NCBI RefSeq assembly: GCF_003182275.1
Contig: NZ_QGTR01000011.1
Span: 1-34,202, forward strand
Origin: Hoeflea marina
GTDB lineage: Bacteria > Pseudomonadota > Alphaproteobacteria > Rhizobiales > Rhizobiaceae
Length of the DNA: 34,202 bases
Direction: 5' to 3'
Positions 2,513 to 31,600 of the stretch are shown piece after piece. The notes below the pieces were generated by a model that was given only the letters and a program-made list of their open reading frames with translations, was not told where the DNA came from and did no database searches. The translations under genes were made by a program, and so were the position numbers. Each line of letters opens with the position of its first letter. The first letter of the stretch is position 1.

Positions 2513-3321
2513 CAGCGCCCCACCTTGGACAGCACGTCGGCGCGAAGGAACTTCTCGATGACGAACATGAACGCGATCGAGGGCACCAGCAGCACGAGGG
2601 CCGTGATCGAGGCGATCTGGTAATTGCCGCCCGAACCCGCCGTATAAAGCAGCAGCGGCAGCGTGGAAACATCCGGCGCGCCGACGAAATAGGTACCGGT
2701 GAACTCGTCGAGCGATTCCAGGAACACGAAGATCGAGCTTGCCAGCAGCCCGGGTGCGGCGATCGGCAGCGTGACGTCGACGAAGGTCCGCATCGCCGAG
2801 GCGCCGATCGAGCGCGCCGCCTCCTCGAGTTCCCCATCGACCGCGGAGAATGCGGCAGTGGCGATCCACACCGCGTAGACCAGGCCGTGGGTGACATGCA
2901 CCAGGACCACGCCGAGAATTGTCCCGTTGAGCCCGAACTGGTAGAAGATGCGGGCGATGTTGACATAGACCGGCAGGTTCGGAAACGCCTGCGGGATCAA
3001 GAGCAGCAGCAGGATCACCCCGCGCAGCGGCAGCTTCAGCCGCGCCAGCGCATAGCCCGCCGGAATGGCAAGCCCCACCGACACCACCACCGTCAGGCAG
3101 GCGATCATCACGCTGGTCAGCAGCGAGACCGTGGCGTTGCCGCGCGGCGAAAACACCTTGGCCCAGTAGGTAAAGCCGTATTCGAGCGGCAGCGCGTGCG
3201 GAAAGTACCAGCGCTCCGTGACCGCCCACAGCACCAGATTGGTCAGCGGCCCGAAGATGGCGAAGGCCAGCAGGCCAAGGCAGAGTCCGCGCGGGATCCA
3301 TTTGAGGTCGTTCAAAGTCAA
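2512..3321 (-). CDS. ABC transporter permease (second subunit)
   Basis: This 269-aa inner-membrane permease has about six hydrophobic helices. The EAA loop reads EEAARSIGASAMRTFVDVTLP, the contact site for the ATPase in binding-protein-dependent importers of the PotC/FbpB/ThiP superfamily. The start is read as TTG at 3321, which overlaps the TGA of the upstream permease. A GAGGGA Shine-Dalgarno lies six bases before it, and no ATG is available at a sensible position. It forms a heterodimer channel with the product of 3318-4139. Its neighbours show an importer for a small solute, probably anionic or phosphorylated (inference from the linked phosphatase). Confidence 0.88.
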   Translation of the reverse strand: MTLNDLKWIPRGLCLGLLAFAIFGPLTNLVLWAVTERWYFPHALPLEYGFTYWAKVFSPRGNATVSLLTSVMIACLTVVVSVGLAIPAGYALARLKLPLRGVILLLLLIPQAFPNLPVYVNIARIFYQFGLNGTILGVVLVHVTHGLVYAVWIATAAFSAVDGELEEAARSIGASAMRTFVDVTLPIAAPGLLASSIFVFLESLDEFTGTYFVGAPDVSTLPLLLYTAGSGGNYQIASITALVLLVPSIAFMFVIEKFLRADVLSKVGR

Positions 3322-4139
3322 CGGTGTTCCCTCATGGTCTGGCGCAGATGGATCCAGGCCACCACGCTGGTGGTCATGAGCGAAATGACGCCAAGCGCGT
3401 TGGCGACGCCGTAGTCGCCATAGGCGTTGATGCGGAATGCCATGCTGGCGGTGATCATGGTCGGCGACTGGGCGTTGATCATCAGCGGCACCGACAGCAC
3501 CGACATCATGGTGACGAAGCTCAGGATCAGGCCGACCAGCAGCGTCGGCAGCACCTGCGGCAGGATGATCTCGACCAGGATGCGCAGCCGGCTGGCGCCG
3601 AGATTGCGTGCCGATTCGATCATCGCCCGGTCGAGCGAGGCCATGGCGCCGGCGATGAGCAGCGTGACGAACGGGGTCTGCTTCCAGACGAAGGCGATGA
3701 CAATGCCGCGCCAGTCGAGAAAGCTGATCGTCTGGGCGGCGGTCAGGATTCCGCTTTCCATCAGCATCGAGTTCATCAGCCCGTTCTTGGCCAGGAAGGT
3801 GCGCAGGATCTGGCCGACGACGATGAAGGGAATGAACAGAGGCCAGCGGTAGAGCCATTTCAGGATCGACACCGCGCGCGGATTGTTGCCGAGCGTCAGG
3901 TAGCCGCCGATGGCGATCGAACAGAGCCCGATCAGCACGGACGACAGCAGCACGATGACGATCGTGAAGACGATGTCGGAGCTGTAGAGTTCGAAGGCCT
4001 TCTGGAAATTGCCGATGCCGAAATTCCCGTCGACATCAAACGCCCCCGTGATCGAACTCGCCAGAGGCACGATGAACAGCAGCGTCACCACCAGCAAAGC
4101 CGGCGTGACGAGAAGAAGGCCGAGAAACGGAACCGGCAT
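3318..4139 (-). CDS. ABC transporter permease (first subunit)
   Basis: This 273-aa membrane protein opens with a hydrophobic helix (FLGLLLVTPALLVVTLLF). A central EAA loop, IESARNLGASRLRILVEIILP, marks it as a binding-protein-dependent importer permease. The start is ATG 4139, preceded by GGTGATC, which can pair with the 3' end of 16S rRNA; a GTG three codons upstream (4148) is possible. Its stop overlaps the TTG of the next permease gene, so the two are translationally coupled. It sits 90 bp after the binding-protein gene in the order binding protein, permease, permease, regulator. Confidence 0.88.
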   Translation of the reverse strand: MPVPFLGLLLVTPALLVVTLLFIVPLASSITGAFDVDGNFGIGNFQKAFELYSSDIVFTIVIVLLSSVLIGLCSIAIGGYLTLGNNPRAVSILKWLYRWPLFIPFIVVGQILRTFLAKNGLMNSMLMESGILTAAQTISFLDWRGIVIAFVWKQTPFVTLLIAGAMASLDRAMIESARNLGASRLRILVEIILPQVLPTLLVGLILSFVTMMSVLSVPLMINAQSPTMITASMAFRINAYGDYGVANALGVISLMTTSVVAWIHLRQTMREHR

Positions 4140-4229
4140 GGTGATCACCCGAATGCGGTTGGACGGGACAGCCCGCGACCGGCGCGGGATGGGATGCGCC
4201 GCGCCCCGAAGGCCGCGGCGCTGTTGCTG

Positions 4230-5363
4230 TCAGTTGCCGACCTGGCGCTCATAGGCCTCCAGGATCGCGGTGTTGTAGGGCGCGATCGGGAAGGACTTGC
4301 CGTTCTTCGCCAGATCCTCGGGCGAGATGTCGGTGAACAGCTTGTCCCATGTCGCGGCATCAAGCTTCGACTGCACCAGCTGCGCATCGATGCCCGGATA
4401 CCAGTTGAAGCGCTTGACGATGCCTTCGGCCTGCACTTCCGGGCTGGTGGCAAGGTTGACGAACTTCTCCGCCAGGTCCTTGTGGCCGCTCTTTTCCGGA
4501 ATGACATAATGCATCGGCTGGCCGGGCATGCCGGGTGCCGGCAGCACCAGTTTCATCTCCGGCGGCAGCTTGCCGTCGGCCTTCCAGGAATAGAACATGT
4601 CGACCCAGACCGGCCCCATGGAGATCTCGCCGCGGCTGAGCATGTCGAGCGTGCCGGCGTTGCCGGGCGTCAGCGTGGCGTTGGTGGTGAAGTCCTTGAG
4701 GCTGGCGAAGGCGTCGGACCACTTGGCGGTCTCGGCCTCCTCGAAGGGACCGTTCATCAGCTTGTCGGCGTCGCCGGCGAAGGCATAGATCCAGCCCATG
4801 ACGAAGCTCACGCCGGAGGCGCCGCCCTTGATGCCGTTGTAGCCGAACTGCTTGGGATTTTCCTTGGCCCAGGTCGCCAGTTCCTCGTAGCTCCTGGGCG
4901 GAGTGGGGACCAGCGCCGGGTTGTAGGCGAGCGCCGTCTGGCTGGAGAACATCGGCATCACATAGCCGTCGACATTGGTGCCGAGCGCCATCTTCGAATT
5001 GGCGCCGGTGGCAAGCTTGCCGTTCTCGATGTCGCCGCGATAGGCGTCGAGATAGCCCTTTTCGACCATCGGTCCGGCGAACTTCTCGTGCACCACGGCG
5101 ACGTCGGCGTCCCAGGTGCCGACATTGGCCTGGGCCTGGGCGTCGAAGCGCTCGAGGATCTTCTGCGAGCCCGCATCGCCGGGGCCGGTGCCGACGGCGC
5201 GAACGGTGGTTCCCGGGTTCTGGGATTCAAACAGCGGGCCGAGATATTCGTTGACGTAGTCGACCATGTTCTGGTCGCCGGCGGTCAGCACCGTCAGTTC
5301 CTCGGCCAGAACCGGCGATGTGGTCAGTGCAAGCGCGACAAGCGGATAACAGACTTTTCTCAT
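4230..5363 (-). CDS. ABC transporter periplasmic substrate-binding protein
   Basis: This 377-aa exported protein has a signal peptide (MRKVCYPLVALALTTSPVLA, cleavage after about residue 20). The mature part resembles the putrescine/ferric-ion/2-aminoethylphosphonate class of extracellular binding proteins. Recognisable stretches are ELTVLTAGDQN at the mature start, LAYNPALVP in the middle and AEKFVNLATSPEVQ near the end. ATG 5363 has a GGGAG Shine-Dalgarno seven bases upstream. It lies between the ATPase and permease genes of one operon. It captures the solute in the periplasm for the permease pair. The substrate is not determinable by eye; hexose phosphate, polyol phosphate, polyamine and iron are all known in this structural class. 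Confidence 0.85.
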   Translation of the reverse strand: MRKVCYPLVALALTTSPVLAEELTVLTAGDQNMVDYVNEYLGPLFESQNPGTTVRAVGTGPGDAGSQKILERFDAQAQANVGTWDADVAVVHEKFAGPMVEKGYLDAYRGDIENGKLATGANSKMALGTNVDGYVMPMFSSQTALAYNPALVPTPPRSYEELATWAKENPKQFGYNGIKGGASGVSFVMGWIYAFAGDADKLMNGPFEEAETAKWSDAFASLKDFTTNATLTPGNAGTLDMLSRGEISMGPVWVDMFYSWKADGKLPPEMKLVLPAPGMPGQPMHYVIPEKSGHKDLAEKFVNLATSPEVQAEGIVKRFNWYPGIDAQLVQSKLDAATWDKLFTDISPEDLAKNGKSFPIAPYNTAILEAYERQVGN

Positions 5364-5470
5364 CACAAAACTCCCTTTGTGGTTGCCCAATGGCAGATGC
5401 AGCGCGTCGGTCAGGGTCTGACCGCCGTTGACGGCGAGAGCCCTTGCGGGCGCTCACCAGAGTGTGAAAT

Positions 5471-5504
5471 CGGCCGAAAGGCCGCTTCCAGGGCGGTTCC
5501 GCCC
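5471..5504 (-). other. Two hairpins between ATPase and binding-protein genes
   Basis: The 156-bp gap between the ATPase stop and the binding-protein start (5364-5519) contains CGGCCGAAAGGCCG (5471-5484, GNRA-type loop) and GGGCGGTTCCGCCC (5491-5504). There is no T-tract. They may protect or help process the mRNA so that the binding protein is made in excess. This role is inference. Confidence 0.4.
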
Positions 5505-5519
5505 GCTTCCCTCCCCGCC

Positions 5520-6602
5520 CTACGAACGGGGAAACAGATAGAGCCGGTCGTCCCGGATGCGCAGATGCACCGCCGTGCCGGCCTCGAAACAGTGCTCGGC
5601 GTCGACCATGACGGTGCGCTCGCCGAGATGGATGACATGGCGCCAGAGACCGCCGGGATAGCTCACCTGGCCGACCACGCCCTCGAGCTGCAGCACGCCC
5701 GGGCCCGGCTCGCCATCGCTCCCGCGCGCATCGACGAGGCTGATGGCCTCGCTGCGGAAGCGCGCCATGGCGGAACCGCTCGCCAGGTCGCGGCCCTGGC
5801 GGCTCAGCGCGGCGCGGCGGTTGTGCGGCCCTTCGGCGACAATCAACGTTTCTCCACCGGCAAGGACGTCGAGATCGATGACGTTCTCCGCCCCCATGAA
5901 GGCTGCGACGAAGTCCGAGGCCGGCTGGTTGTAGACCTGCTGCGGCGTGCCGACCTGGGCGATCTCGCCGCCATTGAGGATGACGATCCGGTCGGCCATC
6001 ACCATTGCCTCCTCGCGATCATGGGTGACATGCACCGCGGTGATGCCGAGCCGGCGCTGCAGCGCGCTGATCTCGTGGCGGACGGTCAGCCGGATGCGCG
6101 CGTCGAGATTGGACAGCGGCTCGTCGAGCAGCAGGATGTCCGGATTGATCGCCAGCGCCCGGCCGAGCGCCACCCGCTGCCGCTGGCCGCCCGAGAGTTC
6201 GCCCGGCTTGCGCCGGCCGAGCGCGTCGAGCCCCAGCAGCGCCCTGACCTCGGCGATGCGCGCCGCGGCGGCGCCCGCGCCGACCCGGCGGATCTTGAGC
6301 CCGTAGCCGATGTTCTGGTCCACCGTCATGTGCGGCCAGAGCGCATAGGACTGGAACACCAGCGCCATGCCGCGCCTGTCCGGCGGCTCGCGGGTGACGT
6401 CGCGGCCGTCGATGCGGATGGCGCCGTGGCTCGGCGTGTGAAAGCCGGCAATGGTGCGCAAAAGTGTCGTCTTGCCGCAGCCCGACGAGCCCAGCAGGGC
6501 CACGAACTCGCCCTTGGCCACCGACAGGTCGACGCCCTTGAGCACCTCCAGCTCGCCGTAACTCACCCGTGCGCCCGCAACCTCAAGATAACCGCCCAAC
6601 AA
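5520..6602 (-). CDS. ABC transporter ATP-binding protein, PotA/MalK type
   Basis: This 360-aa cytoplasmic ATPase drives the importer. It has Walker A GSSGCGKTT, the Q-loop in LVFQSYALWPHMTV, signature [15 protein letters not shown], Walker B ILLLDEPLSNLD and the switch histidine in HVTHDREEAM. After about residue 240 there is a TOBE-like regulatory domain, giving the usual length of the PotA/MalK/FbpC group. The start is read as TTG 6602, with AGGGAG just upstream; a second TTG at 6599 is equally plausible. The palindrome TGCACAGCTGTGCA lies 26-39 bp before the start, suggesting direct control by the operon's LacI regulator. Confidence 0.93.
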   Translation of the reverse strand: MLGGYLEVAGARVSYGELEVLKGVDLSVAKGEFVALLGSSGCGKTTLLRTIAGFHTPSHGAIRIDGRDVTREPPDRRGMALVFQSYALWPHMTVDQNIGYGLKIRRVGAGAAAARIAEVRALLGLDALGRRKPGELSGGQRQRVALGRALAINPDILLLDEPLSNLDARIRLTVRHEISALQRRLGITAVHVTHDREEAMVMADRIVILNGGEIAQVGTPQQVYNQPASDFVAAFMGAENVIDLDVLAGGETLIVAEGPHNRRAALSRQGRDLASGSAMARFRSEAISLVDARGSDGEPGPGVLQLEGVVGQVSYPGGLWRHVIHLGERTVMVDAEHCFEAGTAVHLRIRDDRLYLFPRS

Positions 6603-6627
6603 TCTGCTCCCTGCCTGATTTCACGGC

Positions 6628-6641
6628 TGCACAGCTGTGCA
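6628..6641. promoter_or_regulatory. Candidate LacI-type operator, copy 1
   Basis: TGCACAGCTGTGCA is a perfect 14-bp palindrome in the 82-bp gap upstream of the ATPase gene. The same 14 bp occur again inside the 16-bp palindrome at 7503-7518. Even-length palindromes near promoters suit dimeric LacI-family proteins, and the operon encodes one (1472-2512). The central AGCT differs from the common central CG of LacI sites, so the assignment is inference. Confidence 0.65.
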
Positions 6642-6684
6642 TCGCGAGCCAGAAGCGCTTTCGCGCCACAGGCATTTCCCCACC

Positions 6685-7470
6685 TCAATCCGCCGATTGA
6701 AGCGATATTCCCGTCGCACGACTGACAAGATCCGCCAGTCCAGGGGCCGCGGCCAGAACGGCGCCGCCCGATTCGAGGCTGCCGTCCCCGAGAAACGCGC
6801 AGACCCCGCCGCCCGCTTCCTCGACCAATAGCAGGCCAATAAGACAGTCCCATGAATTCATGTGGCTTTCCGCATAGGCCTCGTTTCGGCCGTCGGCGAC
6901 ATAGGCAAGACCGAGCGCGCCGGAGCCCGCGCGGCGCACGTTGAAGCCCTGGTCGATCAGCGTCTCGAGAGTGCGGAGATAGGTAGCCTTGGCAATTCGC
7001 GTCGACCAGCCGAGTTCGACTGTCGCCGATTGCGCCGAAACGGCGGATGACACCCGGATCGGCTCGCCGTTCAGCGTTGCGCCCTGCCCCCGGCGGGCGA
7101 AATAGAGATCGCCGGCCGCCGGGTTGCAGATCGCACCGAGCTCGGTCCGGCCATCGTGGACAAAGGCGATGGCCACGCAGAAATGGGGGATGCCGCGGGC
7201 AAAGTTGGCAGTTCCGTCAATCGGATCGACCACCCAGACATCGCCGGATGCGGCGCCGCCGCTCTCCTCGCCGAAGAATCCGTCCTCGGGAAAGGCCGCA
7301 ACAATGCGCTGGCGGATGAAGGCCTCGCACAGGCCGTCGGTTTCGGTCAGGTAGTCCTGCGGACCCTTCATGTCGAAGGGCCGGGCACGGCCAAAGCCGC
7401 GCATCACCAGCGCGCCTGCCTCCACGGCCAGGCCGCGACAGAACGCAGCTCTCTCCTCAAGCCGAGCCAT
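6685..7470 (-). CDS. Inositol monophosphatase family protein
   Basis: This 261-aa cytosolic, metal-dependent phosphatase of the IMPase/FBPase/CysQ fold has GEE (residues 67-69), the signature DPIDGTANF (82-90) and the C-terminal SWDCLIGLLLVEEAGG metal-binding motif. Family members hydrolyse inositol phosphates, sugar phosphates or 3'-phosphoadenosine phosphates using Mg2+. ATG 7470 has a GGGGAG Shine-Dalgarno. It is the first gene of the LacI-regulated ABC transporter operon, which argues for a role in dephosphorylating the imported compound rather than for housekeeping inositol or sulfur metabolism. The gap to the ATPase gene is 82 bp. Which phosphate ester it uses cannot be told. Confidence 0.88.
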   Translation of the reverse strand: MARLEERAAFCRGLAVEAGALVMRGFGRARPFDMKGPQDYLTETDGLCEAFIRQRIVAAFPEDGFFGEESGGAASGDVWVVDPIDGTANFARGIPHFCVAIAFVHDGRTELGAICNPAAGDLYFARRGQGATLNGEPIRVSSAVSAQSATVELGWSTRIAKATYLRTLETLIDQGFNVRRAGSGALGLAYVADGRNEAYAESHMNSWDCLIGLLLVEEAGGGVCAFLGDGSLESGGAVLAAAPGLADLVSRATGISLQSAD

Positions 7471-7502
7471 TCTCACTCCCCGCAGTCTCCTCGGCTTCAG
7501 GA

Positions 7503-7518
7503 TTGCACAGCTGTGCAA
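7503..7518. promoter_or_regulatory. Candidate LacI-type operator, copy 2
   Basis: TTGCACAGCTGTGCAA is a perfect 16-bp palindrome 33 bp upstream of the phosphatase ATG, where it would overlap a promoter or the early transcript. It contains the 14-bp palindrome found before the ATPase gene. Two copies within 900 bp, both at gene starts of one operon, are unlikely by chance. Confidence 0.7.
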
Positions 7519-7614
7519 ATCCGTCAACGTTGAACCAGTCCCGGGATGCTCGCTGCCTCGGCCGGAGCACCTGACCGATAGTCGCTTGGTCGAAATGCGC
7601 GCTCGCGCCGCGTG

Positions 7615-7628
7615 TTCCGCGAGCGGAA
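7615..7628. promoter_or_regulatory. Palindrome TTCCGCGAGCGGAA
   Basis: A perfect inverted repeat (TTCCGC, two-base centre, GCGGAA) lies in the 223-bp gap between the response-regulator stop and the phosphatase start. It is not followed by a T-tract. It could be a second operator for the transport operon. The cognate protein is unknown. Confidence 0.4.
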
Positions 7629-7693
7629 TGCTTACAACCGCACCGGAACTGGATCTCGAAAAATGGCCGACGATCGGCTGCTTCGCGTTGCCG

Positions 7694-9034
7694 TCAATCC
7701 TTCGCAACCGCCCCGCGCAGGCCGAAGCGGCTGAGCTTCTCGTTCAGCGTCCGCCGCGGAATGCCGAGCCGTTCGGCGGCCATCGCGCAGCGCCCGTCGC
7801 AGGCGTCCATGGCGGCGCGGATCTCGGCGATCTCGAAGGCGGCAAGCCGGTCGGGAAGGCTGCTTCCCGCCGTCCCGCCGGAAGAGGCCGGCATGCCTGC
7901 CAGTTCATCGAGGCCGAGCGCGAAGCGCTCCGCCCGGGCTTTCAGTTCGCGCACATTGCCGGGCCAGTCACCGGCGCAAATCGTCGTCTGGATCGCCGCA
8001 CCGATTTCCGGATCGGGCCGGCCGTGGCGCTGCGCCGCCATCCGGGCAAAATGCGTGAACAGCAGCGGGATGTCGTCCTTGCGGTGGCGGAGCGGCGGGA
8101 TCCGGATCTCGGTGCCCGCCAGCCTGTAGAACAGGTCCTGGCGAAAGCCGCCGCCGGCAATCGCCTCGCCCAGATCGGTCTTGGCAGCCGTCACCACGCG
8201 GATGTCCACCCGGCGGGGCACGTTGTCGCCCAGCCGCTCGATCTGCCGCTCCTGCAGCACCCTCAGGATCTTGGCCTGCAGCCCGGCCGGCATCGATTCG
8301 ATCTCGTCGAGAAAGATGGTGCCGCCGTCGGCATATTCGAACTTGCCCTTGCGCTCGGCCTGCGCCCCGGTGAACGCTCCCCTGGCGTGACCGAAGACCT
8401 CGCTTTCGAAGATGCTCTCGGGGATGGCCGCGCAATTGACCGCCACGAACGGCCCCGCGCGCCGCGGACTGCCGTCATGCAGCGCGCGCGCCACCAGTTC
8501 CTTGCCGGTGCCGGTCTCGCCGATGATCAGCACGTCGATGTCGATGGCGGCGAGCGTGGCAATGCGGTCGCGCATCAGCCGCATGGCGGAACTGTCGCCG
8601 ATGATGCCGCCGCTGTCACCGGCCGCCACCAGCCGCTTGAGCCTGGCGATCTCGCGGCCCATCCGCCGCTTGCCAACGGCGCGGTCGAGCACGCTCACCA
8701 GGTGGTCTGCGTCATAGGGCTTTTCGATGAAATCCTCGGCGCCCTGCCGCATCGCGCTGACGGCAAGCGCCACGTCGCCATGGCCGGTCATCAGCACCAC
8801 CGGCAGATCGGGGCGGCCCGCGGTGATGTCGGAGAGCAGCGCCATCCCGTCCCGGCCCGGCATGCGGATGTCGGTGACCACCACGTCGGGATCGGTCTCG
8901 TCGATGCGGCCTGCCACCCGATGCGGATCGGCCACCGCCGTGACCTCGAAGCCGGAGACCTGCAGCCAGTCGCTGGCGGCCGCCAGAAGGTCGGCGTCGT
9001 CGTCGACCAGCAGCACCCTGCCGCGCCCGCTCAT
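7694..9034 (-). CDS. DctD-like sigma-54-dependent response regulator
   Basis: This 446-aa response regulator has three domains. The receiver (1-120) carries acidic residues DDD at 11-13 and phosphoacceptor D55 in VVVTDIRMPG. The AAA+ domain has Walker A GETGTGKE, the sigma-54-contacting GAFTGA loop, Walker B GGTIFLDEI and the WPGNVREL sensor region. A Fis-type helix-turn-helix at the C-terminus ends RLGIPRRTLNEKL. It therefore activates sigma-54 RNA polymerase when phosphorylated. Its ATG overlaps the kinase stop (ATGA), so it pairs with the kinase at 9031-10842. The likely target is the -24/-12 promoter at 14564-14579 in front of the TAXI-TRAP genes of the same gene run. Confidence 0.93.
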   Translation of the reverse strand: MSGRGRVLLVDDDADLLAAASDWLQVSGFEVTAVADPHRVAGRIDETDPDVVVTDIRMPGRDGMALLSDITAGRPDLPVVLMTGHGDVALAVSAMRQGAEDFIEKPYDADHLVSVLDRAVGKRRMGREIARLKRLVAAGDSGGIIGDSSAMRLMRDRIATLAAIDIDVLIIGETGTGKELVARALHDGSPRRAGPFVAVNCAAIPESIFESEVFGHARGAFTGAQAERKGKFEYADGGTIFLDEIESMPAGLQAKILRVLQERQIERLGDNVPRRVDIRVVTAAKTDLGEAIAGGGFRQDLFYRLAGTEIRIPPLRHRKDDIPLLFTHFARMAAQRHGRPDPEIGAAIQTTICAGDWPGNVRELKARAERFALGLDELAGMPASSGGTAGSSLPDRLAAFEIAEIRAAMDACDGRCAMAAERLGIPRRTLNEKLSRFGLRGAVAKD

Positions 9035-10842
9035 TCTGCGGCCACCCGCTGCGGTGGGGCGACGGGCATGCTGACCGTCGCCACCGTTCCGCCGCCGGGT
9101 GCGGACGAGAAGACGATGTCGCCGCCGAACTCAGCCATGATGGCATTGGAGATCGACAGGCCGAGACCGAGGCCCCCGCCGGAGATCTTGGTGGTGAAGA
9201 ACGGCTCGGAGATCCGCGGCATCAGCTCGCGCGAGATGCCCGGCCCGTTGTCGCTCACCCGCACCGTCAGTCGCGCGCCGGCGCTCTCCCGCTCGACCGT
9301 CACCGCGCCCTGGGCTGCGCCCTCGACCGCATCGAGCGCATTGACGATCAGGTTGATCAGCACCTGCTCCAGCTTCACCGCCACCGCCGGCACGAAGGGC
9401 GGCGAGCCCTCCGGCGCGAAATGCGGCGTCACGCCGACGCTGCGGGCGCGCGCCGAGACGACCTCGAGCGCGTTGCGGACCGCCTCGTCGATGTCGACCA
9501 GCGTCAGTTCGGCGGCATCCCTGCGGCCGAAGCTCTTGAGGTGCTTGACCGTGCGCTGCATGCGGCGGATCAGCGCCCGCGCCGCCTTGAGCCTCTCGCC
9601 CACCGGCCCGGCATCGATCTGCCGCGCCAGCGCGTCGGCTGTGGCGAGCGTCGTCTCGAGCGCGGCCAGCGGCTGGGCCACCTCGTGCACGATTGCCGCC
9701 GACATGCGCCCCAGCGCCGCCATCTTCTCGGAATGGATCAACCCCTCCTGGGCGGCGCGCAGGTCGGCCTCGGTGCGGCGGCGGATCTCGTTCTCGCGCG
9801 CCAGTTCGCGGGTGCGCTCGCCCACCATCCGCTCCAGCATGTCGGTCTGTCTCAGTCTGAGCTGGGTGAGCACCCGGCGCTGCCCGAGGTAATGCACGCC
9901 GCCGGCGGCAAGCAGCCCCGAGAGCCCGGCCACCAGCGCCCAGAAGCCGGCCCGGTCGCGCGCCGCGGCGGTGTCGGTGGCCGAGAGGATCAGCCAGCCG
10001 TCCGGATCGACCGGACGAAACCGCGCCAGCAGCCCGGAGCCGCCGGCGCCCGGCGCAAATTCCGTCCCGCCCGCGCCGGCCGGCGCTGCCGCGCTGCCGC
10101 CCTCGAGCAGCGGCCGGGCGCTCGCGAGCTCGATCCCCTCATAGGTGCGCTCCTCGGCGATGCGCGCCTGCGCCTGCGCCGTCAGCGGCGACAGCGGTCG
10201 GTATTTCCAGTCCGGATTGCCCGACAGGAACACCACGCCGTTGCGGTCGGCGATCGCCGTCTGCGCGCCGGCCGCCTGCCATGCTGTTTCCAGCGGCTCC
10301 AGATCGACCTTGGCCACCACGACGCCGATGATGCCGTCCCGGGTCAGGAGCCGCGAGGACAGGAAGTAGCCGGGCCGGCCGGTGGTCACGCCGATGGCGT
10401 AGTAGCGGCCTTCGCCGCCGGCCATGGCGTCGCGGTAATAGGGCCGGAAACTGTAGCTGTTGCCGACGAAGCTGCCGGGCTCGTCGTGGTTGCTGGCCGC
10501 CAGCGTCAGGCCGGCATCGTTGAGCACGTAGAGCTGCGCGGCCCCCGACTGGCCGGCCACCGTCCTGAGATAGGCATTGGCAGCCTCCACCGCGTCCCCG
10601 TCGCCCGGCCGCGCGATCAGCTGCCGGATGCGGGCGTCCTCGCCCAGCACCCGCGGCAGGTAGCGGAAGCGCTCGACCTCGCTCTCGATCGCCCGCTTGG
10701 TGACGATCAGGTTCTGCTCCAGCCCCGCCTGCAGCGCCGAGATGGCGGCGCCATGGGCCACGTACCAGGCAGCCAGCGAAGCGATCCCCGCTGCCGCCAG
10801 CATCAGCAGCGTCAGTCTGCCGTCGCGTCTGTGCATCCGCAT
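9031..10842 (-). CDS. DctB-like membrane sensor histidine kinase
   Basis: This 603-aa inner-membrane kinase has a first transmembrane helix at about residues 9-30 (LTLLMLAAAGIASLAAWYVA). A periplasmic PDC/Cache sensor domain follows, with the DctB-like YYAIGVTTGRPGYFLSSRL stretch. A second helix (FWALVAGLSGLLAAGGVHYL) leads into a coiled coil. The H-box is AAIVHEVAQPLAALE, then the N-box NLIVNALDAVEG, the G1 box VSDNGPGIS, EPFFTTK and the G2 box GGLGLGLSISN. DctB-type kinases sense dicarboxylates or other organic acids outside the cell. ATG 10842 is preferred; ATG 10836 is possible. It follows the DUF1850 gene after 83 bp and probably senses the ligand of the neighbouring TRAP transporter. 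Confidence 0.92.
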   Translation of the reverse strand: MRMHRRDGRLTLLMLAAAGIASLAAWYVAHGAAISALQAGLEQNLIVTKRAIESEVERFRYLPRVLGEDARIRQLIARPGDGDAVEAANAYLRTVAGQSGAAQLYVLNDAGLTLAASNHDEPGSFVGNSYSFRPYYRDAMAGGEGRYYAIGVTTGRPGYFLSSRLLTRDGIIGVVVAKVDLEPLETAWQAAGAQTAIADRNGVVFLSGNPDWKYRPLSPLTAQAQARIAEERTYEGIELASARPLLEGGSAAAPAGAGGTEFAPGAGGSGLLARFRPVDPDGWLILSATDTAAARDRAGFWALVAGLSGLLAAGGVHYLGQRRVLTQLRLRQTDMLERMVGERTRELARENEIRRRTEADLRAAQEGLIHSEKMAALGRMSAAIVHEVAQPLAALETTLATADALARQIDAGPVGERLKAARALIRRMQRTVKHLKSFGRRDAAELTLVDIDEAVRNALEVVSARARSVGVTPHFAPEGSPPFVPAVAVKLEQVLINLIVNALDAVEGAAQGAVTVERESAGARLTVRVSDNGPGISRELMPRISEPFFTTKISGGGLGLGLSISNAIMAEFGGDIVFSSAPGGGTVATVSMPVAPPQRVAAE

Positions 10843-24542: not shown

Positions 24543-24572
24543 TGCAATGCACAATTATATTGCAGTGCACAA
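24543..24572. promoter_or_regulatory. Two TGCARTGCACAA repeats between divergent phasins
   Basis: TGCAATGCACAA (24543-24554) and TGCAGTGCACAA (24561-24572) are direct repeats 18 bp apart, each preceded by TAT. The core TGCAnTGCA is a short palindrome. PhaR-family repressors of phasin genes are reported to bind TGC/GCA-rich palindromes, so these are candidate PhaR sites. The remainder of 24326-24646 shows no gene. Confidence 0.6.
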
Positions 24573-24646
24573 CGAAATGTGCCATTTCCACCCTGCCCCG
24601 GGTCAATCGAACGGGGCGTGACATTGCTCCAATGAGGATGACCGAC

Positions 24647-25306: not shown

Positions 25307-25903
25307 TCAAAATCTCAACCCCATCTTGGCGGGATTTGTCGCCGCTGTCGTTTCGACCGCGTCCCCTGTCATCCGCGCCTGGGCGCGCTCCAGGCCATGC
25401 GGCACCTCGATGCGGCCGACGGAGCGATTGCCGGAAAACCGCATCTCGGCGCCATGCCGGCGCGCCAGGGCCTTCATGGCGAGATTGTTCGATCCGGTCT
25501 CCACCAGCATGGCGCCAAGGCCGACGGTTTCCGCCTGCTTCAGCAGTTCCCGGATCAGTGCCGATCCAACGCCCTTGCGGCGCCACTCGGCGGCCACCGA
25601 GAAGGCCGTCTCGCCCTCGCCGTTCGCCGCGGCGTCGCCGCGGTGCAGTTCCGCGACCGCCACCAGACGTCGGCCGTCGAAGGCGCCGACAATGATGGCC
25701 GCCTTCAGGGATCGCTCGATGTAGCCGTCAAGCCAGTGGTCGGAGGTCGTGCCGTTGAAGCGGTCGCGACGGGCGTCGGGGTCCAGCTGATGCAGGTGAG
25801 CCGCAAACGCGGATGCGTCCGCCGGCCGAAGCCGCCGATAGCGCAATGGGTGCGGAACTGAAGCTGCAGGGGTCCAGGGACCAGAAGACAGGTTGCAGAG
25901 CAT
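25307..25903 (-). CDS. GNAT family N-acetyltransferase
   Basis: This 198-aa single-domain GNAT has a first strand YRRLRPADASAFAAHL and motif A FSVAAEWRRKGVGSALIREL, where RRKGVG is the acetyl-CoA pyrophosphate loop. ETGSNNLAMKALARRHGAEM follows as motif B. It transfers an acetyl group from acetyl-CoA to an amine of unknown identity. ATG 25903 is the only good start, with a weak ribosome-binding site. A TGCAATGCACAA motif shared with the phasin control region lies 46-57 bp upstream, suggesting the same regulator. It is divergent from the lipoprotein gene at 26238 with 334 bp between. Confidence 0.88.
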   Translation of the reverse strand: MLCNLSSGPWTPAASVPHPLRYRRLRPADASAFAAHLHQLDPDARRDRFNGTTSDHWLDGYIERSLKAAIIVGAFDGRRLVAVAELHRGDAAANGEGETAFSVAAEWRRKGVGSALIRELLKQAETVGLGAMLVETGSNNLAMKALARRHGAEMRFSGNRSVGRIEVPHGLERAQARMTGDAVETTAATNPAKMGLRF

Positions 25904-25948
25904 GGTCGACTTTCACGGTCATCTCCCGCCGAATCCTCACGCCGAATA

Positions 25949-25960
25949 TTGTGCATTGCA
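25949..25960 (-). promoter_or_regulatory. Third TGCAATGCACAA motif, upstream of GNAT gene
   Basis: The minus strand reads TGCAATGCACAA, identical to the site at 24543-24554. It sits inside a larger inverted repeat, AATATTG (25945-25951) and CAATATT (25962-25968). It is a candidate PhaR-type site over the acetyltransferase promoter. Confidence 0.5.
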
Positions 25961-25984
25961 GCAATATTTTCAAGGCAAAGTTTT

Positions 25985-25999
25985 GTGACAGTCTGTCAC
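25985..25999. promoter_or_regulatory. Perfect 15-bp palindrome GTGACAGTCTGTCAC
   Basis: Seven-base arms around one T lie in the 334-bp region between the divergent acetyltransferase and lipoprotein genes. The half sites recall Pho-box half sites (CTGTCAC) but in inverted arrangement, which PhoB does not use. It is probably an operator for a dimeric repressor. Confidence 0.5.
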
Positions 26000-26154
26000 G
26001 CGGCGGCATTGATCGAAGCGGGCCGCCCGCGTCCCTCCCGCACGCCCTCGGCCACCCTGGTCGGTCGCCTCGCATCTCATCGCGACCTCGTCCCCCAGTT
26101 GGGGGATGCCGCCTGCCGGATCCATCCCTAGGGTCCGATCACGCAGCACTGCAC

Positions 26155-26177
26155 TGACGCCGCCAAGCCTGGCGTCA
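26155..26177 (+). other. Leader hairpin upstream of the lipoprotein gene
   Basis: TGACGCC and GGCGTCA pair around nine bases, 61 bp before the lipoprotein ATG, and could lie in its 5' leader. Another short palindrome, CCCCCAGTTGGGGG, lies about 50 bp further upstream. No riboswitch class is recognisable. Confidence 0.35.
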
Positions 26178-26237
26178 CCGTGATCCACACCTGTCCAGAC
26201 CGATGACCATCGGGGACGCCAGCCACCGGAGCCTTCC

Positions 26238-27296
26238 ATGAAAAAGTTGTTCGTATCCTCCACCGTCCTCGCAGGTCTTGCCATGCTGGCCGGCTGCTCC
26301 CCGTCAGCGGGTGGCGGTGGTGGCGGCGGCACGGCCGTCACCGGAACCCTGCCCATTACCGCCAGCGGCAGGATGCTGGCCTTTCAGGCAACGGCGGACA
26401 CCACGCTCTACGACACCGCTGAACCAGGCGTGCAGAACGCCTACACACAGCTCACAGGGACGACGATGCTCGACAAGTCCGCGCCCGCCGGCATGGCGAT
26501 CTCTGGGTCGGCGGAGGAGGACCCCACGCCCTACGCCAGCCAGGGACCCAACGCGGCGCTGATCACCGCGACATCGGCGGACACCATGGCCGGCGGCACG
26601 GCGCTCAAGGGCATCACCAACGGCAAGGGCAACGTCTATTTCGAGGCAGGCGCCTTCGGGGATCCCCAGGTCGGCACGACCGACGCCAACCTGTCCGCGG
26701 TCGGTGTCTACAACATCTACGAGAACAACCAGCTGGTCGACACCATCGTCATGCAGCACGGCACAACGATCCGCTACGCCGACAGCGGCTCCGGCGGCAA
26801 CGGCAATTTCGGCGTGGGCTATATCGGCAACAACACCACCACCATGCCCGGCTCCGGAACCGCCACCTACAAGGGCTTCTGGGAAGGCGGCGTCGGCGCC
26901 TACGACACCGGCGCGGGCACCGCGCAGATGGGCCTGTCCGGAAAGGTCGCCCTCGCCGCCAATTTCCAGACCGGCAAGGTCTCGGGCGGCGTGACCGACG
27001 CCAGGCTCGAAACCTATGATTCGGGAACGCAGCAACTGGTCAATCTCAACTCTTCGATCACCGGTCTGAAGGTCGACGCCGACATCACCGGCTCCGAATA
27101 TGCCGGCACGGCGACGCTGGTCGATTCCGGCGGCAATGCGGTGGGCACCACGACATCGAACAATCTCATCGGCGCCTTCCTCGGCGACAACGCGGCCGAA
27201 ACCGTTGCCGCCACAGCCATAGAGGGCAGCGCCGAGCTCGGCGGCACGACGCGCAACTACATCCTGACCGGCGTCATCGGCGGCCAGAAGAACTGA
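26238..27296 (+). CDS. TbpB-like surface lipoprotein, Slam substrate
   Basis: This 352-aa lipoprotein has a lipobox LAGC with acylated Cys20 after a short signal peptide. A glycine-rich tether (seven glycines) follows. The C-terminal half has the transferrin-binding-protein-B type eight-stranded barrel pattern: ATYKGFWEGGVGAY, LAANFQTGKVSGGV, then GAFLGDNAAETV and the closing ILTGVIGGQ. ATG 26238 has GGAG six bases upstream. Proteins with this barrel are flipped to the cell surface by Slam, and the next gene encodes a Slam. No TonB-dependent receptor gene is adjacent, so iron or heme capture is not shown; the ligand is unknown. It should sit on the outer face of the outer membrane. Confidence 0.85.
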   Translation: MKKLFVSSTVLAGLAMLAGCSPSAGGGGGGGTAVTGTLPITASGRMLAFQATADTTLYDTAEPGVQNAYTQLTGTTMLDKSAPAGMAISGSAEEDPTPYASQGPNAALITATSADTMAGGTALKGITNGKGNVYFEAGAFGDPQVGTTDANLSAVGVYNIYENNQLVDTIVMQHGTTIRYADSGSGGNGNFGVGYIGNNTTTMPGSGTATYKGFWEGGVGAYDTGAGTAQMGLSGKVALAANFQTGKVSGGVTDARLETYDSGTQQLVNLNSSITGLKVDADITGSEYAGTATLVDSGGNAVGTTTSNNLIGAFLGDNAAETVAATAIEGSAELGGTTRNYILTGVIGGQKN

Positions 27297-27327
27297 CCCG
27301 GCCGATCCTGCCGATACCGGTGCATTG

Positions 27328-28668
27328 ATGTTGAACATGTCTATCCGCCTCCCAAGGCGTTGTCGGACCGCCGCTCTCGCCCTGGTCCTGGCGGGAGCGG
27401 CGGCTTTTTCCCCGGCTTTCGCCGCCGTCCCACTGGGCGATCAGGCCACCTATCTTACCGGCGTCGAGCGGCTGATCGCGTCCGGCGATCTCGCCACGGC
27501 GGAAAAGGCGCTGCTTGGCCACCGCTTCGACGGCGAAGACAACGCCTTCCGTGCCGCCTTCCTGCTCGCCATGGTCAAGGGCCGCACGGGCAGGCTCGTC
27601 GAGGCCGAAAAGCTGTTGCGCCAAATGCTGGCGCAGCGGCCGAACCTGGAGCGGGTCCAACTGGAACTCGCACACGTGCTGGCTGCCCAGGGCCGCAGGG
27701 AGGCCGCCGCTTACCAGTTGCGCAGGCTCGCCGACGCCAGCGGCAACGACCTTGCCCGCAGCGAACTCGAGGGCCTGATCGACCGGATCAATCCGCGCGG
27801 CGGCTGGAGCGCCAACGTGTTCATGACGCTCGCGCCGTCGACCAACGTCAACAACGGCTCGAGAAACACCACCATCCTGGTCGGCGGCCTGCCATTCGCC
27901 ATCGCCGATGACGGCCGTGCGCAATCCGGCATCGGCGCCACCAGCGGCGTCTCCCTCTCCTACGCCCGACCGTTGAGCGAAAAGCTGACGGCCTTCGTCG
28001 CCGGCTCCGCCTCGTTCACGAATTACTCCGGCGGACCCTACGACAAGCCGCTCATCGAACTGCAGGCCGGACTGCGCCATCGCGGCCTGAAGCATTTCCT
28101 CTCCGCCGAACTGCTCGTCGACAAGGTCTGGCTCGGCGGCGACGCCAACAGCCACGGGCTCGGCGGCCGCATCACCGGGCGCTGGAGCGTGGCGCCGAAA
28201 TGGCTGCTGTCGGCCGACACCACTTTCATGAGCCGCTTCGCCGACACTCCCGCCGGCGCCGACGCCAACACCTGGCGCAGCAACACCGCGCTGAGGTTTT
28301 CTCCGAGCATCGCCATGTCCTTCTGGGCCGGTGGCGGATACGAGACCGAGGAGGTCAGGGGGCGACGCTTCTCCTCCTACCGCCAGTGGAGCGGCACGCT
28401 CGGTCACAGCCGCGAGCTCAGCCACGGCATTTCGGTCTCCGCGCAGTTGACCCTCGGCAGCCGCGGCTTTGAGGCCGACTTTCCCGGCATGGGCGAGCCG
28501 CGCCGGGACGAGTTCTACGAACTGCGAGCCACGGTGATGAAGCGCGATTTCCAGATCTTCGGGGTCACGCCGCGCTTCGGCATCAGCTACCTCGACCAGA
28601 CCAGCAACGTCGCGCTCTACGACTTCGACCGATGGAGCGGCGACGTCACCCTGACCCGCGAGTTCTGA
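27328..28668 (+). CDS. Surface lipoprotein assembly modifier (Slam, DUF560)
   Basis: This 446-aa outer-membrane protein has a signal peptide (ALALVLAGAAAFSPAFA). A periplasmic TPR-like helical domain spans residues ~30-150 (TAEKALLGHRF, RLVEAEKLLRQML, RVQLELAHVLAAQGRREAA). A C-terminal barrel begins near GWSANVFMTLAPSTNVNNG and ends with the outer-membrane-protein terminal phenylalanine (TLTREF). Slam proteins move TbpB-type and other lipoproteins across the outer membrane (type XI secretion). It lies 31 bp after its presumed substrate gene on the same strand. I read ATG 27328; ATG 27337 is also possible, and neither has a strong ribosome-binding site. Its stop is 12 bp from the convergent soxA stop. 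Confidence 0.88.
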   Translation: MLNMSIRLPRRCRTAALALVLAGAAAFSPAFAAVPLGDQATYLTGVERLIASGDLATAEKALLGHRFDGEDNAFRAAFLLAMVKGRTGRLVEAEKLLRQMLAQRPNLERVQLELAHVLAAQGRREAAAYQLRRLADASGNDLARSELEGLIDRINPRGGWSANVFMTLAPSTNVNNGSRNTTILVGGLPFAIADDGRAQSGIGATSGVSLSYARPLSEKLTAFVAGSASFTNYSGGPYDKPLIELQAGLRHRGLKHFLSAELLVDKVWLGGDANSHGLGGRITGRWSVAPKWLLSADTTFMSRFADTPAGADANTWRSNTALRFSPSIAMSFWAGGGYETEEVRGRRFSSYRQWSGTLGHSRELSHGISVSAQLTLGSRGFEADFPGMGEPRRDEFYELRATVMKRDFQIFGVTPRFGISYLDQTSNVALYDFDRWSGDVTLTREF

Positions 28669-28680
28669 CGGCGGACGCCA

Positions 28681-31600
28681 TCAGACGCTTGCACCCGCCC
28701 GCGAGAGGCTTTCGGCCAGATCCCGCGCATAGGTGGAGAACACCATCACCTCATAGCTGTCGGCACCGGACGCCGTCAGTTGCACCGGCACATGGCCGAA
28801 CAGCGTCGGGGCGCTCGCTCCAGGGCCGAAGACGTCGAGATCGATGGCCGAATGCTGGGCGATGACCCCGCGTGCCCCCGCCCCCGACAGGCCGATCCGC
28901 ACCCGCGCACCTCCCAGATCGAGGAGCCGTGCACCGGCCGGCAGGTCGGCGGCCAGCCGCTCCCCAAGGTCGGCAAAGCTCTCCCCCGCCCTGCCCACGG
29001 CCAGCACCTGCCCCGGCGCAACGACGCGTGCGGTGCCGTCGCCAAGCGCCCCCGCCTTTGCCAGGGCGGCAAGCCTGGCCGCCGGACTCCTGACGCCGTG
29101 CAGCAGCGCCACCGGCGCGCTCGGCAGCAGCTCCATCCGCGCCGGCGCCTCGATGGACGACGGCAGGTCCTTGAGCAGCATGGAAACGGCCGGCGTGACC
29201 GCCATCACCGGCGCCAGCCGCCGTTCGGGTTCGATGCCGGCATCCGCGACCGGCAGGAACACCGGATCGACGACGCGCGCCTCGGTCTCCAGCCCGCGCA
29301 CCGCGTCCCAGACGACGATGGTCTCGCCGTGGCGATCACGCCCGCGCTTGAGCATGGCAAGCCCGATCGGGCTTTGCAGATGCGGCGACCAGCAGGCGGA
29401 CGCCACATGGCCCTGATCGTTGGCCATCGATGGCGTGGCATTGACCTCGAGCAGATGCGCGCCGGCGAGAATCCGCTGCGTCGGCTTGAGCGGAACAAGC
29501 CCGACCAGTTGCCCCCGGTCCTCGCGCTGCATGCCCTCGCGCGCAAGCATCGCGCGACCGATGAAATCCGCTTTCTTGGCCGACACCATCTTGCCGAGTC
29601 CGAGATCGCCCGGCGTCACCCGTCCATCGATTTCCGCATGCGTGAGAAACCCCTTCTCGATGCGGAGCACATTGAGCGCTTCCAGCCCGTAGGGCGCCGC
29701 CCCGAACGGCTCGCCGGCCGCAAGCAGCGCATCGGCCACCGCCTCGCCGTGCTGGAACGGCACCGCCAGCTCGTAGCCCAGTTCGCCCGAAAACGAGATC
29801 CGGAACAGGCGGGCCTCGAGACCCGAATGCAGCGTCACCGGCCGCGCCGTCATGAACGGGAACGACGCGTCGGAGACATCCTCGGCCACGACGCGGGCCA
29901 CCACCTCGCGGGCGCGCGGCCCGGCGATGGTGATCTGCGCCCACTGGTCGGTCACCGACGCCAGATTGACGTCCATTTCCGGCCACAGCGCCTGCGAACA
30001 GAATTCCAGATGCGCCATGACTTCGCCGGCCGCCGCCGTCGTCGTCGTCACCAGATAGTGGTCCTCGGCGAGCCGGCTCGCCGTGCCGTCGTCCATCAGC
30101 ATGCCGTCCTCGCGCAGCATCAGCCCGTAGCGCGCGCGGCCGACGGCGAGCGTCGACATCGTGCCGGTGTAGACCCGGTCGAGAAACGCCGCCGCGTCCG
30201 CGCCGCTGACGTCGATCTTGCCCAGGGTCGAGGCATCGGAAATGCCGACGCCCGCCCGCACGGCCAGCGTCTCGCGGTCGCAGGCGTCCTTCCAGCCGGC
30301 GTCGCCCTCGATCGGGAAATGCGAGGCGCGCAGCCACTGCCCGGCCTCGATGAACACCGCGCCGTGCCTCTCGGCCCAGTGGTGCAGCGGCGAGCGCCGC
30401 ACCGGCGCATAGTGCGAGCCGACATTCTGGCCGGCCAGCGCGCCGATCGACACCGGCGTGTAGAACGGCCGAAATGTCGTGGTGCCCACCTGGTCCGGGG
30501 TCGTCCCCCGCGCTTCGGCGAGGATGCCGATGGCGTTGATGTTGCCGGTCTTGCCCTGGTCGGTGGCCATGCCGGTGGTGGTGTAGCGCTTGGCGAGCTC
30601 GACATGGCCGTAGCCCTCGCGCACCGCCAGCCCCAGATCGGAGACGGTGACATCGTTCTGGAAGTCGACAAAGGCCTTGGCCTTGGCCTCCTTGACATGC
30701 CACAGCGTCGCAAAGCCCGGTGTGCCGCCGCTGGCTTCGCGGACGGCGGGCAGCGCCGTCTTTTTCGGCTTCCGCCCGAGCGCACCCAGCGCCCGTGTCG
30801 CCGCCGCCACGCCCTCGGCGAGGCAACCGGCGAGATCGAAGCTGCCGTTGGCCGCACCCGCGGCTTCCAGCCCGTCGCGGGGGGCGGGCGGCAGGAACAG
30901 GCCGCGTTCCCCGTCCCAGGCCGGCCGATCGCCGCGCTGGCAGCTCAGATGCACCACCGGGCTCCACCCGCCGGACATGGCGAGGCTGTCAACCGGCACC
31001 GTCTCGGTGCGGCCATTGCCGGTGTTGAGGACATGCACCGCCGCCACCGCGCCGCGGCCGCCGACATCGGTGATGAGGTGGCCCGAGAGCACCCTGAGGC
31101 CCTCCGAGGCGGCCCGGTCCGCCTCCGGAATGTCCTGCCGGCAATCGATGACCGCCGCCACCTCGACGCCAAGCCGCTTCAGGTCCCGCGCCGTCTCGTG
31201 ACCGGACGAGCCGGTGGTGAAGATCGCCGCCCGGGCTCCGGGATTGATCGCCTGGCCGTTGGCCAGACCGCGCATCAGCGAGGCGGTCATCACCCCCGGC
31301 CGATCGTTGTTGCCGAACACCAGTGGTCGCTCCTCGGCCCCCGTCGCCATCACGGCGCGCCTGGCAATCACCCGCCACACCCGCTCGTTGGCGCCGCCGG
31401 CCTCGGCCGGATCGAGCCGCTCGACGGCACCGTAGACGCCGCTGTCATAGGCTCCGAACACCGTCGTGCGCGTGAGCAGCTTCGCCCCCAGCCCCTCGAG
31501 CTCGGCCACGGCATCGGCCACGAATCCGGGGCCGTCGGTCTCTCCGATCTCGACCCGGTCGCGGATCAGCCGCCCGCCGGGGGAAGCCATCTCGTCGCAC

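What the first reader, a model, noticed from the sequence alone, without database searches (positions are those of the whole stretch)
26238..28668. Two-gene Slam (type XI secretion) module in a Rhizobiales-like genome
The sequence shows a lipobox protein whose C-terminal half reads like a TbpB barrel, followed after 31 bp by a TPR-plus-barrel protein matching Slam/DUF560. Slams are best known from Neisseria, Moraxella and other animal-associated gammaproteobacteria and betaproteobacteria, where they export transferrin, hemoglobin or symbiosis-related lipoproteins. Here no TonB-dependent receptor is adjacent and the neighbours are phasins and sarcosine oxidase. The ligand of this surface lipoprotein is therefore open: metal, organic or host-derived.
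Basis: partly seen in the sequence, partly recalled or inferred. Interest (0 to 1): 0.75.

Follow-up and report, generated by a model that had tools for sequence, protein, structure and literature searches.

The report
Type 11 secretion pair in Hoeflea
Two neighbouring genes in a Hoeflea-like bacterium encode a lipid-anchored protein and the outer-membrane pore that very probably flips it onto the cell surface; this is a known kind of system in a little-studied group, and what the surface protein binds is unknown.

Summary
ORF 26238-27296 is a lipobox protein with a TbpB-type barrel (PF01298, E 1.2e-9); ORF 27328-28668, 31 bp downstream, is a full-length Slam/DUF560 protein (PF04575, E 8.8e-19) behind TPRs. 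Predicted folds show an 8-strand barrel and TPRs plus a 14-strand barrel. The Hoeflea-like genome has one match to each family, both here. Among 121 genomes (own included) cargo homologues occur in 9, exactly those with a close Slam homologue, and in 0 of 112 others. It is very likely a type 11 secretion cargo-exporter pair. Slams in all proteobacterial clades are already in print (PMC5449769), so the unusual host is not new. Added here: no TonB receptor found in 41 Slam regions; an outward domain without a Pfam match; and a change of place: other Hoeflea carry the pair near zapA, whereas here that site lacks it and the pair lies between sarcosine oxidase and a GNAT gene. Surface exposure is untested and the ligand unknown; an iron role is not excluded. 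Verdict: real, new member of a known kind, modest interest.

The parts
26238..27296 (+). Cargo gene: predicted surface lipoprotein, 352 aa
   Evidence: ORF; PF01298 E 1.2e-9; homologues in 9 of 121 genomes, always with the close Slam
26238..26297 (+). Type II signal peptide with lipobox L-A-G-C, Cys20
   Evidence: read from the translation; Cys20 invariant in 16 aligned cargos; no signal-peptide program was run
26346..26834 (+). N-terminal (effector plus pedestal) beta domain, residues 37-199, no Pfam match
   Evidence: no family there; strands; pLDDT mostly 70-95, but 53-67 at residues 131-160; mean pairwise identity 0.60 among 8 cargos
26844..27293 (+). C-terminal 8-stranded TbpB-type barrel, residues 203-352 (expected Slam-recognition domain)
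   Evidence: PF01298 at 203-324; eight long strands in the model (counted by eye); Foldseek and profile matches to TbpB, LbpB, hemophilin
27328..28668 (+). Slam / T11SS outer-membrane protein, 446 aa
   Evidence: PF04575 E 8.8e-19, full profile length; conserved in relatives
27442..27789 (+). Periplasmic TPR domain of the Slam, residues 39-154 (seven helices)
   Evidence: TPR families; H39-52 to H141-154
27802..28665 (+). 14-stranded outer-membrane barrel of the Slam, residues 159-446, ending in Phe
   Evidence: 14 long strands, counted by eye; best target-normalised Foldseek match among the 50 shown is OmpG (TMt 0.70)

Best explanation
The two genes are a self-contained type 11 secretion (Slam) pair. 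Inferred from the families: the lipoprotein is exported by Sec, lipidated on Cys20, carried to the outer membrane by Lol, and recognised through its C-terminal 8-strand barrel by the Slam, whose 14-strand pore and periplasmic TPR domain move it to the outer leaflet, where its N-terminal beta domain faces outward. Shown here: domains, predicted folds, gene order, strict co-occurrence, broadly agreeing trees. Not shown: surface exposure, ligand. For the ligand (my odds about 0.4) I think a surface-binding or adhesion role more likely than iron capture, because no TonB receptor was found near the Slam regions examined and the N-terminal domain is about as conserved as the barrel. The confidence below is for the cargo-exporter pair only.
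For: Family matches over curated cut-offs. In an 11-member set, 10 of 11 cargos match PF01298 at E 0.1 and 11 of 11 exporters match PF04575 at E 0.01. Folds: TPRs plus 14 strands (pLDDT 81.8), 8-strand barrel (pLDDT 81.9), PDB matches to TbpB, LbpB, hemophilin and NHBA and profile matches to TbpB E 6.6e-17 and hemophilin E 5.5e-7. Co-occurrence: cargo in 9 of 121 genomes (own included), the same nine that have a close Slam; 0 of 112 others (Fisher p 9e-14, not corrected for relatedness). Lipobox protein directly upstream of the Slam in 15 of 17 named loci. Trees.
Against: The TPR_Slam match is below its curated cut-off. Whole-chain TM-scores of the cargo are low (TMq 0.23-0.33 for the TbpB-, hemophilin- and fHbp-type matches, best TMt 0.59 for NHBA), so only the barrel is clearly matched. 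No solved Slam is among the 50 PDB matches shown of 1,475. In 8 of 20 further Slam regions of the order no barrel protein was found. Absence of nearby TonB receptors does not exclude an iron role: the genome has three elsewhere. No localisation data.
Confidence: 0.87

Rival explanations
1. Same export mechanism, but the cargo is a haem or metal capture protein (lipidated, hemophilin-like), handing its ligand to one of the TonB receptors encoded elsewhere.
For: Hemophilin is among the fold and profile matches; published group 2 haemophilin-like cargos are mostly lipidated (65 of 72, PMC12282271 section 15); three TonB-dependent receptors exist in the genome.
Against: No receptor found in the window or 40 other Slam regions; the cargo's only His (in HGTTIRY) is not kept in the Rhizobium albus relative, though haem can be held by other residues; the hemophilin match spans profile positions 159-329, mostly barrel.
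Confidence: 0.2
2. The exporter is a Slam-family protein but the neighbouring lipoprotein is not its cargo and stays periplasmic.
For: Adjacency alone does not prove transport; no experiment.
Against: Complete co-occurrence, lipobox protein upstream in 15 of 17 named loci, barrel of the type shared by known cargos.
Confidence: 0.06
3. The TPR-barrel protein is a polysaccharide exporter (PgaA, BcsC, PelB type) rather than a protein translocon.
For: Top Foldseek hits include BcsC and PelBC; weak NCBIfam matches to PgaA and BcsC, both in the TPR part.
Against: The PgaA score is far below cut-off (19 against 367 bits); PF04575 covers the whole barrel; 14 strands; no synthase or glycosyltransferase among the 12 other window genes run against Pfam, of 25 called besides the pair.
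Confidence: 0.02

Closest known systems
Slam1-TbpB of Neisseria meningitidis (T11SS subcluster 1A)
   Same: TPR plus PF04575 barrel exporter; lipidated cargo with a C-terminal TbpB_B_D barrel
   Different: This cargo has one barrel, not two lobes; no TonB-dependent receptor found nearby; alphaproteobacterial host
Lipidated haemophilin-like cargos (group 2 of PMC12282271, section 15)
   Same: Lipidated, single barrel behind a beta domain
   Different: N-terminal domain has no Pfam match; no receptor found beside it; haem binding untested
NilB-NilC of Xenorhabdus nematophila
   Same: T11SS exporter with a surface lipoprotein (abstract start of PMC9100927 in listing)
   Different: Sequence relation not tested here; the host role of NilC cannot be carried over
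Marine cluster 3 T11SS of Rhodobacteraceae with DUF1194 partners (PMC12282271, section 17)
   Same: T11SS of Alphaproteobacteria
   Different: Partner here is a TbpB_B_D lipoprotein, rare in cluster 3 (8 of 145 loci); the habitat of this genome is not known from any call

Membership tests
Slam / T11SS outer-membrane protein (PF04575) | Full-length DUF560/SlipAM barrel | tested here: met
   E 8.8e-19, profile 1-288 of 288, 68.5 bits over cut-off 22
Slam / T11SS outer-membrane protein (PF04575) | N-terminal TPR domain | tested here: met
   TPR families by E-value and seven helices; the specific TPR_Slam model and the general TPR models are below their curated cut-offs in this protein
Slam / T11SS outer-membrane protein (PF04575) | 14-stranded barrel | tested here: met
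   14 long strands in the AlphaFold2 model
Slam / T11SS outer-membrane protein (PF04575) | Moves a cargo protein to the surface or medium | not testable with these tools
   needs an experiment
T11SS lipidated cargo (TbpB_B_D) | C-terminal 8-strand TbpB_B_D barrel | tested here: met
   PF01298 E 1.2e-9, eight long strands
T11SS lipidated cargo (TbpB_B_D) | Signal peptide with lipobox | tested here: met
   LAGC at 17-20; Cys20 invariant in 16 of 16 aligned; by eye, no signal-peptide predictor
T11SS lipidated cargo (TbpB_B_D) | Encoded beside its exporter | tested here: met
   31 bp upstream; strict co-occurrence
TbpB/LbpB/hemophilin iron-capture cargo | TonB-dependent receptor in the locus (frequent, not universal) | tested here: not met
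   none found in the window or in 40 other Slam regions (limits of the scan in the report)
TbpB/LbpB/hemophilin iron-capture cargo | Binds transferrin, lactoferrin or haem | not testable with these tools
   needs binding assays

The most novel reading that the evidence does not exclude
Hoeflea and relatives carry a distinct lineage of type 11 secretion whose surface lipoprotein has an undescribed N-terminal domain and serves a purpose other than iron or haem capture, such as attachment to algae or other surfaces, and which moves as a two-gene cassette between chromosomal sites (from the zapA/5-formyl-THF cyclo-ligase site to the sarcosine oxidase-GNAT site, or the reverse).
Probability: 0.35. 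Interest if true: 0.55.

Novelty: new member of a known kind. Interest (0 to 1): 0.36.

Why it matters
According to PMC12282271 (abstract) only seven T11SS exporters, all from the animal-associated cluster 1, have verified cargo. A compact two-gene pair from a genus with cultured strains (named strains), with no iron receptor found beside it, would be a clean test of whether Slams outside animal-associated bacteria use the same barrel signal, and of what such surface lipoproteins do when no host iron is at stake.

Tried and rejected
Polysaccharide exporter: rejected on family match and context. Iron-capture operon: no receptor found nearby; one search ran a first version of that scan in which, by my mistake, one of the three receptor queries was left out and a neighbouring gene used instead, so one search replaces it. 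Mobile element at the edges: the repeat search of 25850-28900 showed no repeats bracketing the pair and its G+C (0.65-0.69 in 600-base windows) resembles its flanks (0.61-0.74). A terminator-like hairpin 40 nt into the Slam gene (27368-27403) looked like an attenuator between cargo and exporter, but of 12 relatives 10 showed none and 2 a weak one, so I do not claim it. The first genome-contig scan, with the single protein, found nothing; the scan with the alignment found 17 loci. Paper searches for Slam with DUF560 or hemophilin and alphaproteobacteria and for surface lipoprotein assembly modifier with Rhizobi gave 0 papers; Hoeflea with lipoprotein and outer membrane gave one unrelated paper (listing); some searches listed the T11SS papers used here and unrelated ones. 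The library is open-access only, so absence is weak evidence. The class survey of PF01298 (29 of 385 genomes) is background only. The NCBIfam, PDB single-sequence and Slam-profile PDB searches added nothing beyond TPR matches.

Full report
Observation. The first starts MKK, has a hydrophobic stretch and L-A-G-C at residues 17-20, then a Gly-rich linker. Pfam finds one family in it, TbpB_B_D at 203-324 (E 1.2e-9), and in the second SlipAM/DUF560 over the whole profile (E 8.8e-19) behind TPR repeats. The Slam-specific TPR model scores below its cut-off in this protein, though it matches 11 of 11 aligned homologues at E 0.01 or better.

Folds. Models from 16-sequence alignments have mean pLDDT 81.9 (cargo, pTM 0.80) and 81.8 (Slam, pTM 0.72). 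Counting long strands by eye, the cargo ends in eight (208-223, 232-242, 247-260, 276-284, 287-295, 304-315, 321-334, 337-351) and the Slam has seven helices followed by fourteen strands. Foldseek places the cargo with TbpB, LbpB, hemophilin, NHBA and factor H binding protein, with low whole-chain TM-scores. A profile search of PDB sequences gives TbpB at E 6.6e-17 and hemophilin at 5.5e-7, mostly over the barrel. The Slam model matches OmpG (TMt 0.70) and TPR-barrel exporters such as BcsC. The 60 PDB sequences shown (of 88) for the Slam profile match its TPR part.

Which organism. The window lies in a genome of 5.26 Mb in 20 contigs. Named relatives of the pair are Hoeflea (six loci: L081-L085, L092), Rhizobium albus (L080), and more distantly Nitratireductor, Mesorhizobium, Chelativorans, Aestuariivirga and unnamed Hyphomicrobiales. 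I infer a Hoeflea-like member of the Rhizobiaceae; no 16S test was made.

Pairing. The genome has one PF04575 and one PF01298 match, both here. Among 121 genomes (own and 120 relatives) a Slam homologue at E 0.001 or better occurs in 21, nine of them close (E 8e-91 or better, own included). Cargo homologues occur in exactly those nine and in none of the other 112. In the genus, 8 of 18 genomes have the pair and 10 lack both; two of the ten are only 75-77% complete. In the 17 named loci a lipobox protein lies directly upstream of the Slam in 15; L088 begins at the Slam, and in L096, the weakest, none was found. In both trees the window protein groups with the Hoeflea and R. albus proteins (100/100 for the Slam, 100/99 for the cargo). 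The Slam tree puts the window next to the Hoeflea set (96/94); the cargo tree leaves its order with R. albus open, and its deep forks are weak.

Wider survey. PF04575 is in 22 of 297 genomes of the order, 20 over the cut-off. In 20 regions fetched from that search (L116-L135) a profile of our cargo barrels found a barrel protein in 12 and none in 8. Of the 8, L128 and L134 are short contigs, L126 has an upstream lipoprotein ending in a similar way (as L041), in L131 my profile found no Slam either, and L129, L132, L133 and L135 are plain misses. Of the 12, L118 carries the same protein as L087, which was in the profile. Four more were scanned in that call: L140, L142 (same protein as L089) and L044 (a fragment) with a barrel, L141 without. 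Eight others (L086, L087, L089-L091, L093-L095) match by construction.

TonB receptors. The genome has three, on other contigs, two of them beside genes that look by eye like ABC transporter parts. With the three as queries and as a profile, 0 of 41 sequences fetched around a Slam match (the window, L080-L096, L116-L135, L140-L142) contained one. Limits: three of the 41 are under 5 kb, several are the same locus fetched twice (such as L087/L118 and L089/L142), the profile's control hits are its own three inputs, and of the single queries only two of the three found each other, so distant receptors could be missed. By contrast PMC5449769 reports receptors in 120 of 185 Slam clusters (passage) and PMC12282271 TonB C-terminal domains by 364 of 1,111 cluster 1 queries (passage).

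Place in the chromosome. In five of the six named Hoeflea loci (L082-L085, L092) the pair lies between a 5-formyl-THF cyclo-ligase gene and zapA, in some with further genes in between; L081 shows zapA only. Pfam confirmed these genes in L084; in the others I matched the start of the translation by eye. In the window's genome cyclo-ligase (Pfam) and zapA lie about 0.66 kb apart without the pair (L136). Here the pair lies between sarcosine oxidase alpha and a GNAT gene. Of 17 other genus genomes, 12 have a sarcosine oxidase alpha of 69-71% identity with the GNAT homologue 0.18-4.8 kb away on the same contig; none of the 12 holds the pair there, and seven of the 12 have it elsewhere. So the pair has changed place or was gained separately. 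Its Slam is 37-41% and its cargo 49-53% identical to the six Hoeflea ones, against about 70% for sarcosine oxidase, which fits separate gain or fast divergence. Both sites happen to adjoin folate one-carbon genes (the oxidase has a GCV_T folate domain); PMC12282271 reports one-carbon genes near T11SS genes in general (sections 14 and 17). With two sites this is an anecdote.

Conservation inside the cargo. Among eight Hoeflea-type cargos (window, R. albus, six Hoeflea) the mean pairwise identity is 0.60 for residues 37-199 and 0.65 for 203-352. The outward domain is thus not strongly variable, unlike host-facing effectors under immune pressure (that comparison is recalled, not measured). Invariant stretches include VYF and TTIRY.

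Literature. Seen: PMC8406197 (passages), PMC12282271 (outline with abstract, passages, sections 14, 15, 17), PMC5449769 (passages, section 12); other papers in search listings only. PMC5449769 states that Slams are found in all clades of Proteobacteria. PMC12282271 describes Sphingomonas cargos with several TbpB barrels; that Sphingomonas is an alphaproteobacterium is recalled, so TbpB-type cargos of that class are in print. The terms Alphaproteobacteria and Rhizob do not occur in the main text of PMC12282271 or PMC8406197; supplements and figures were not seen, so whether this clade is in their network is not known.

Verdict. A real, well-supported type 11 secretion pair; new member of a known kind. 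What remains open is surface exposure and the ligand.

Noticed in passing
24543-24575 and 25945-25965: A TTGCA-n-TGCA type site stands by the phasin gene and upstream of the GNAT gene; a similar site stands by the GNAT start in 13 of 15 relatives (L097-L111 except L102, L103). The loose pattern hits the window 19 times, so it is not specific by itself. It may be a PHA-regulator (PhaR) site; that name is recalled.
   Followed up: partly
25985-25999: Short palindrome GTGACA-GTC-TGTCAC between the GNAT gene and the lipoprotein gene, possible operator (read).
   Followed up: no
27368-27403: 14-pair G+C-rich hairpin followed by CTTTTT, 40 nt inside the Slam gene; terminator-like, but of 12 relatives 10 show none and 2 a weak one.
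   Followed up: yes
L130 (G127:C1:1568900-1581800): One Slam with four barrel-type proteins upstream of it (two of the ORFs as called overlap), a possible multi-cargo locus.
   Followed up: no
L125, L127: Slam loci with two tandem barrel proteins, one with and one without a lipobox by my simple pattern.
   Followed up: no
L080 (Rhizobium albus) 2310-9323: The pair directly follows genes that look by eye like an ABC ATPase and a large permease, and a CrtC/Lipocalin_9 protein (Pfam).
   Followed up: no
L084 9244-11139; similar starts in L081, L085, L092: In several Hoeflea the gene after the Slam encodes a LuxR-type DNA-binding domain fused to an alpha/beta hydrolase (Pfam on L084 only; the others by eye).
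   Followed up: no
L140 (G313:C1:660000-674000): One genus member has a second, divergent Slam with its own lipobox barrel protein.
   Followed up: no
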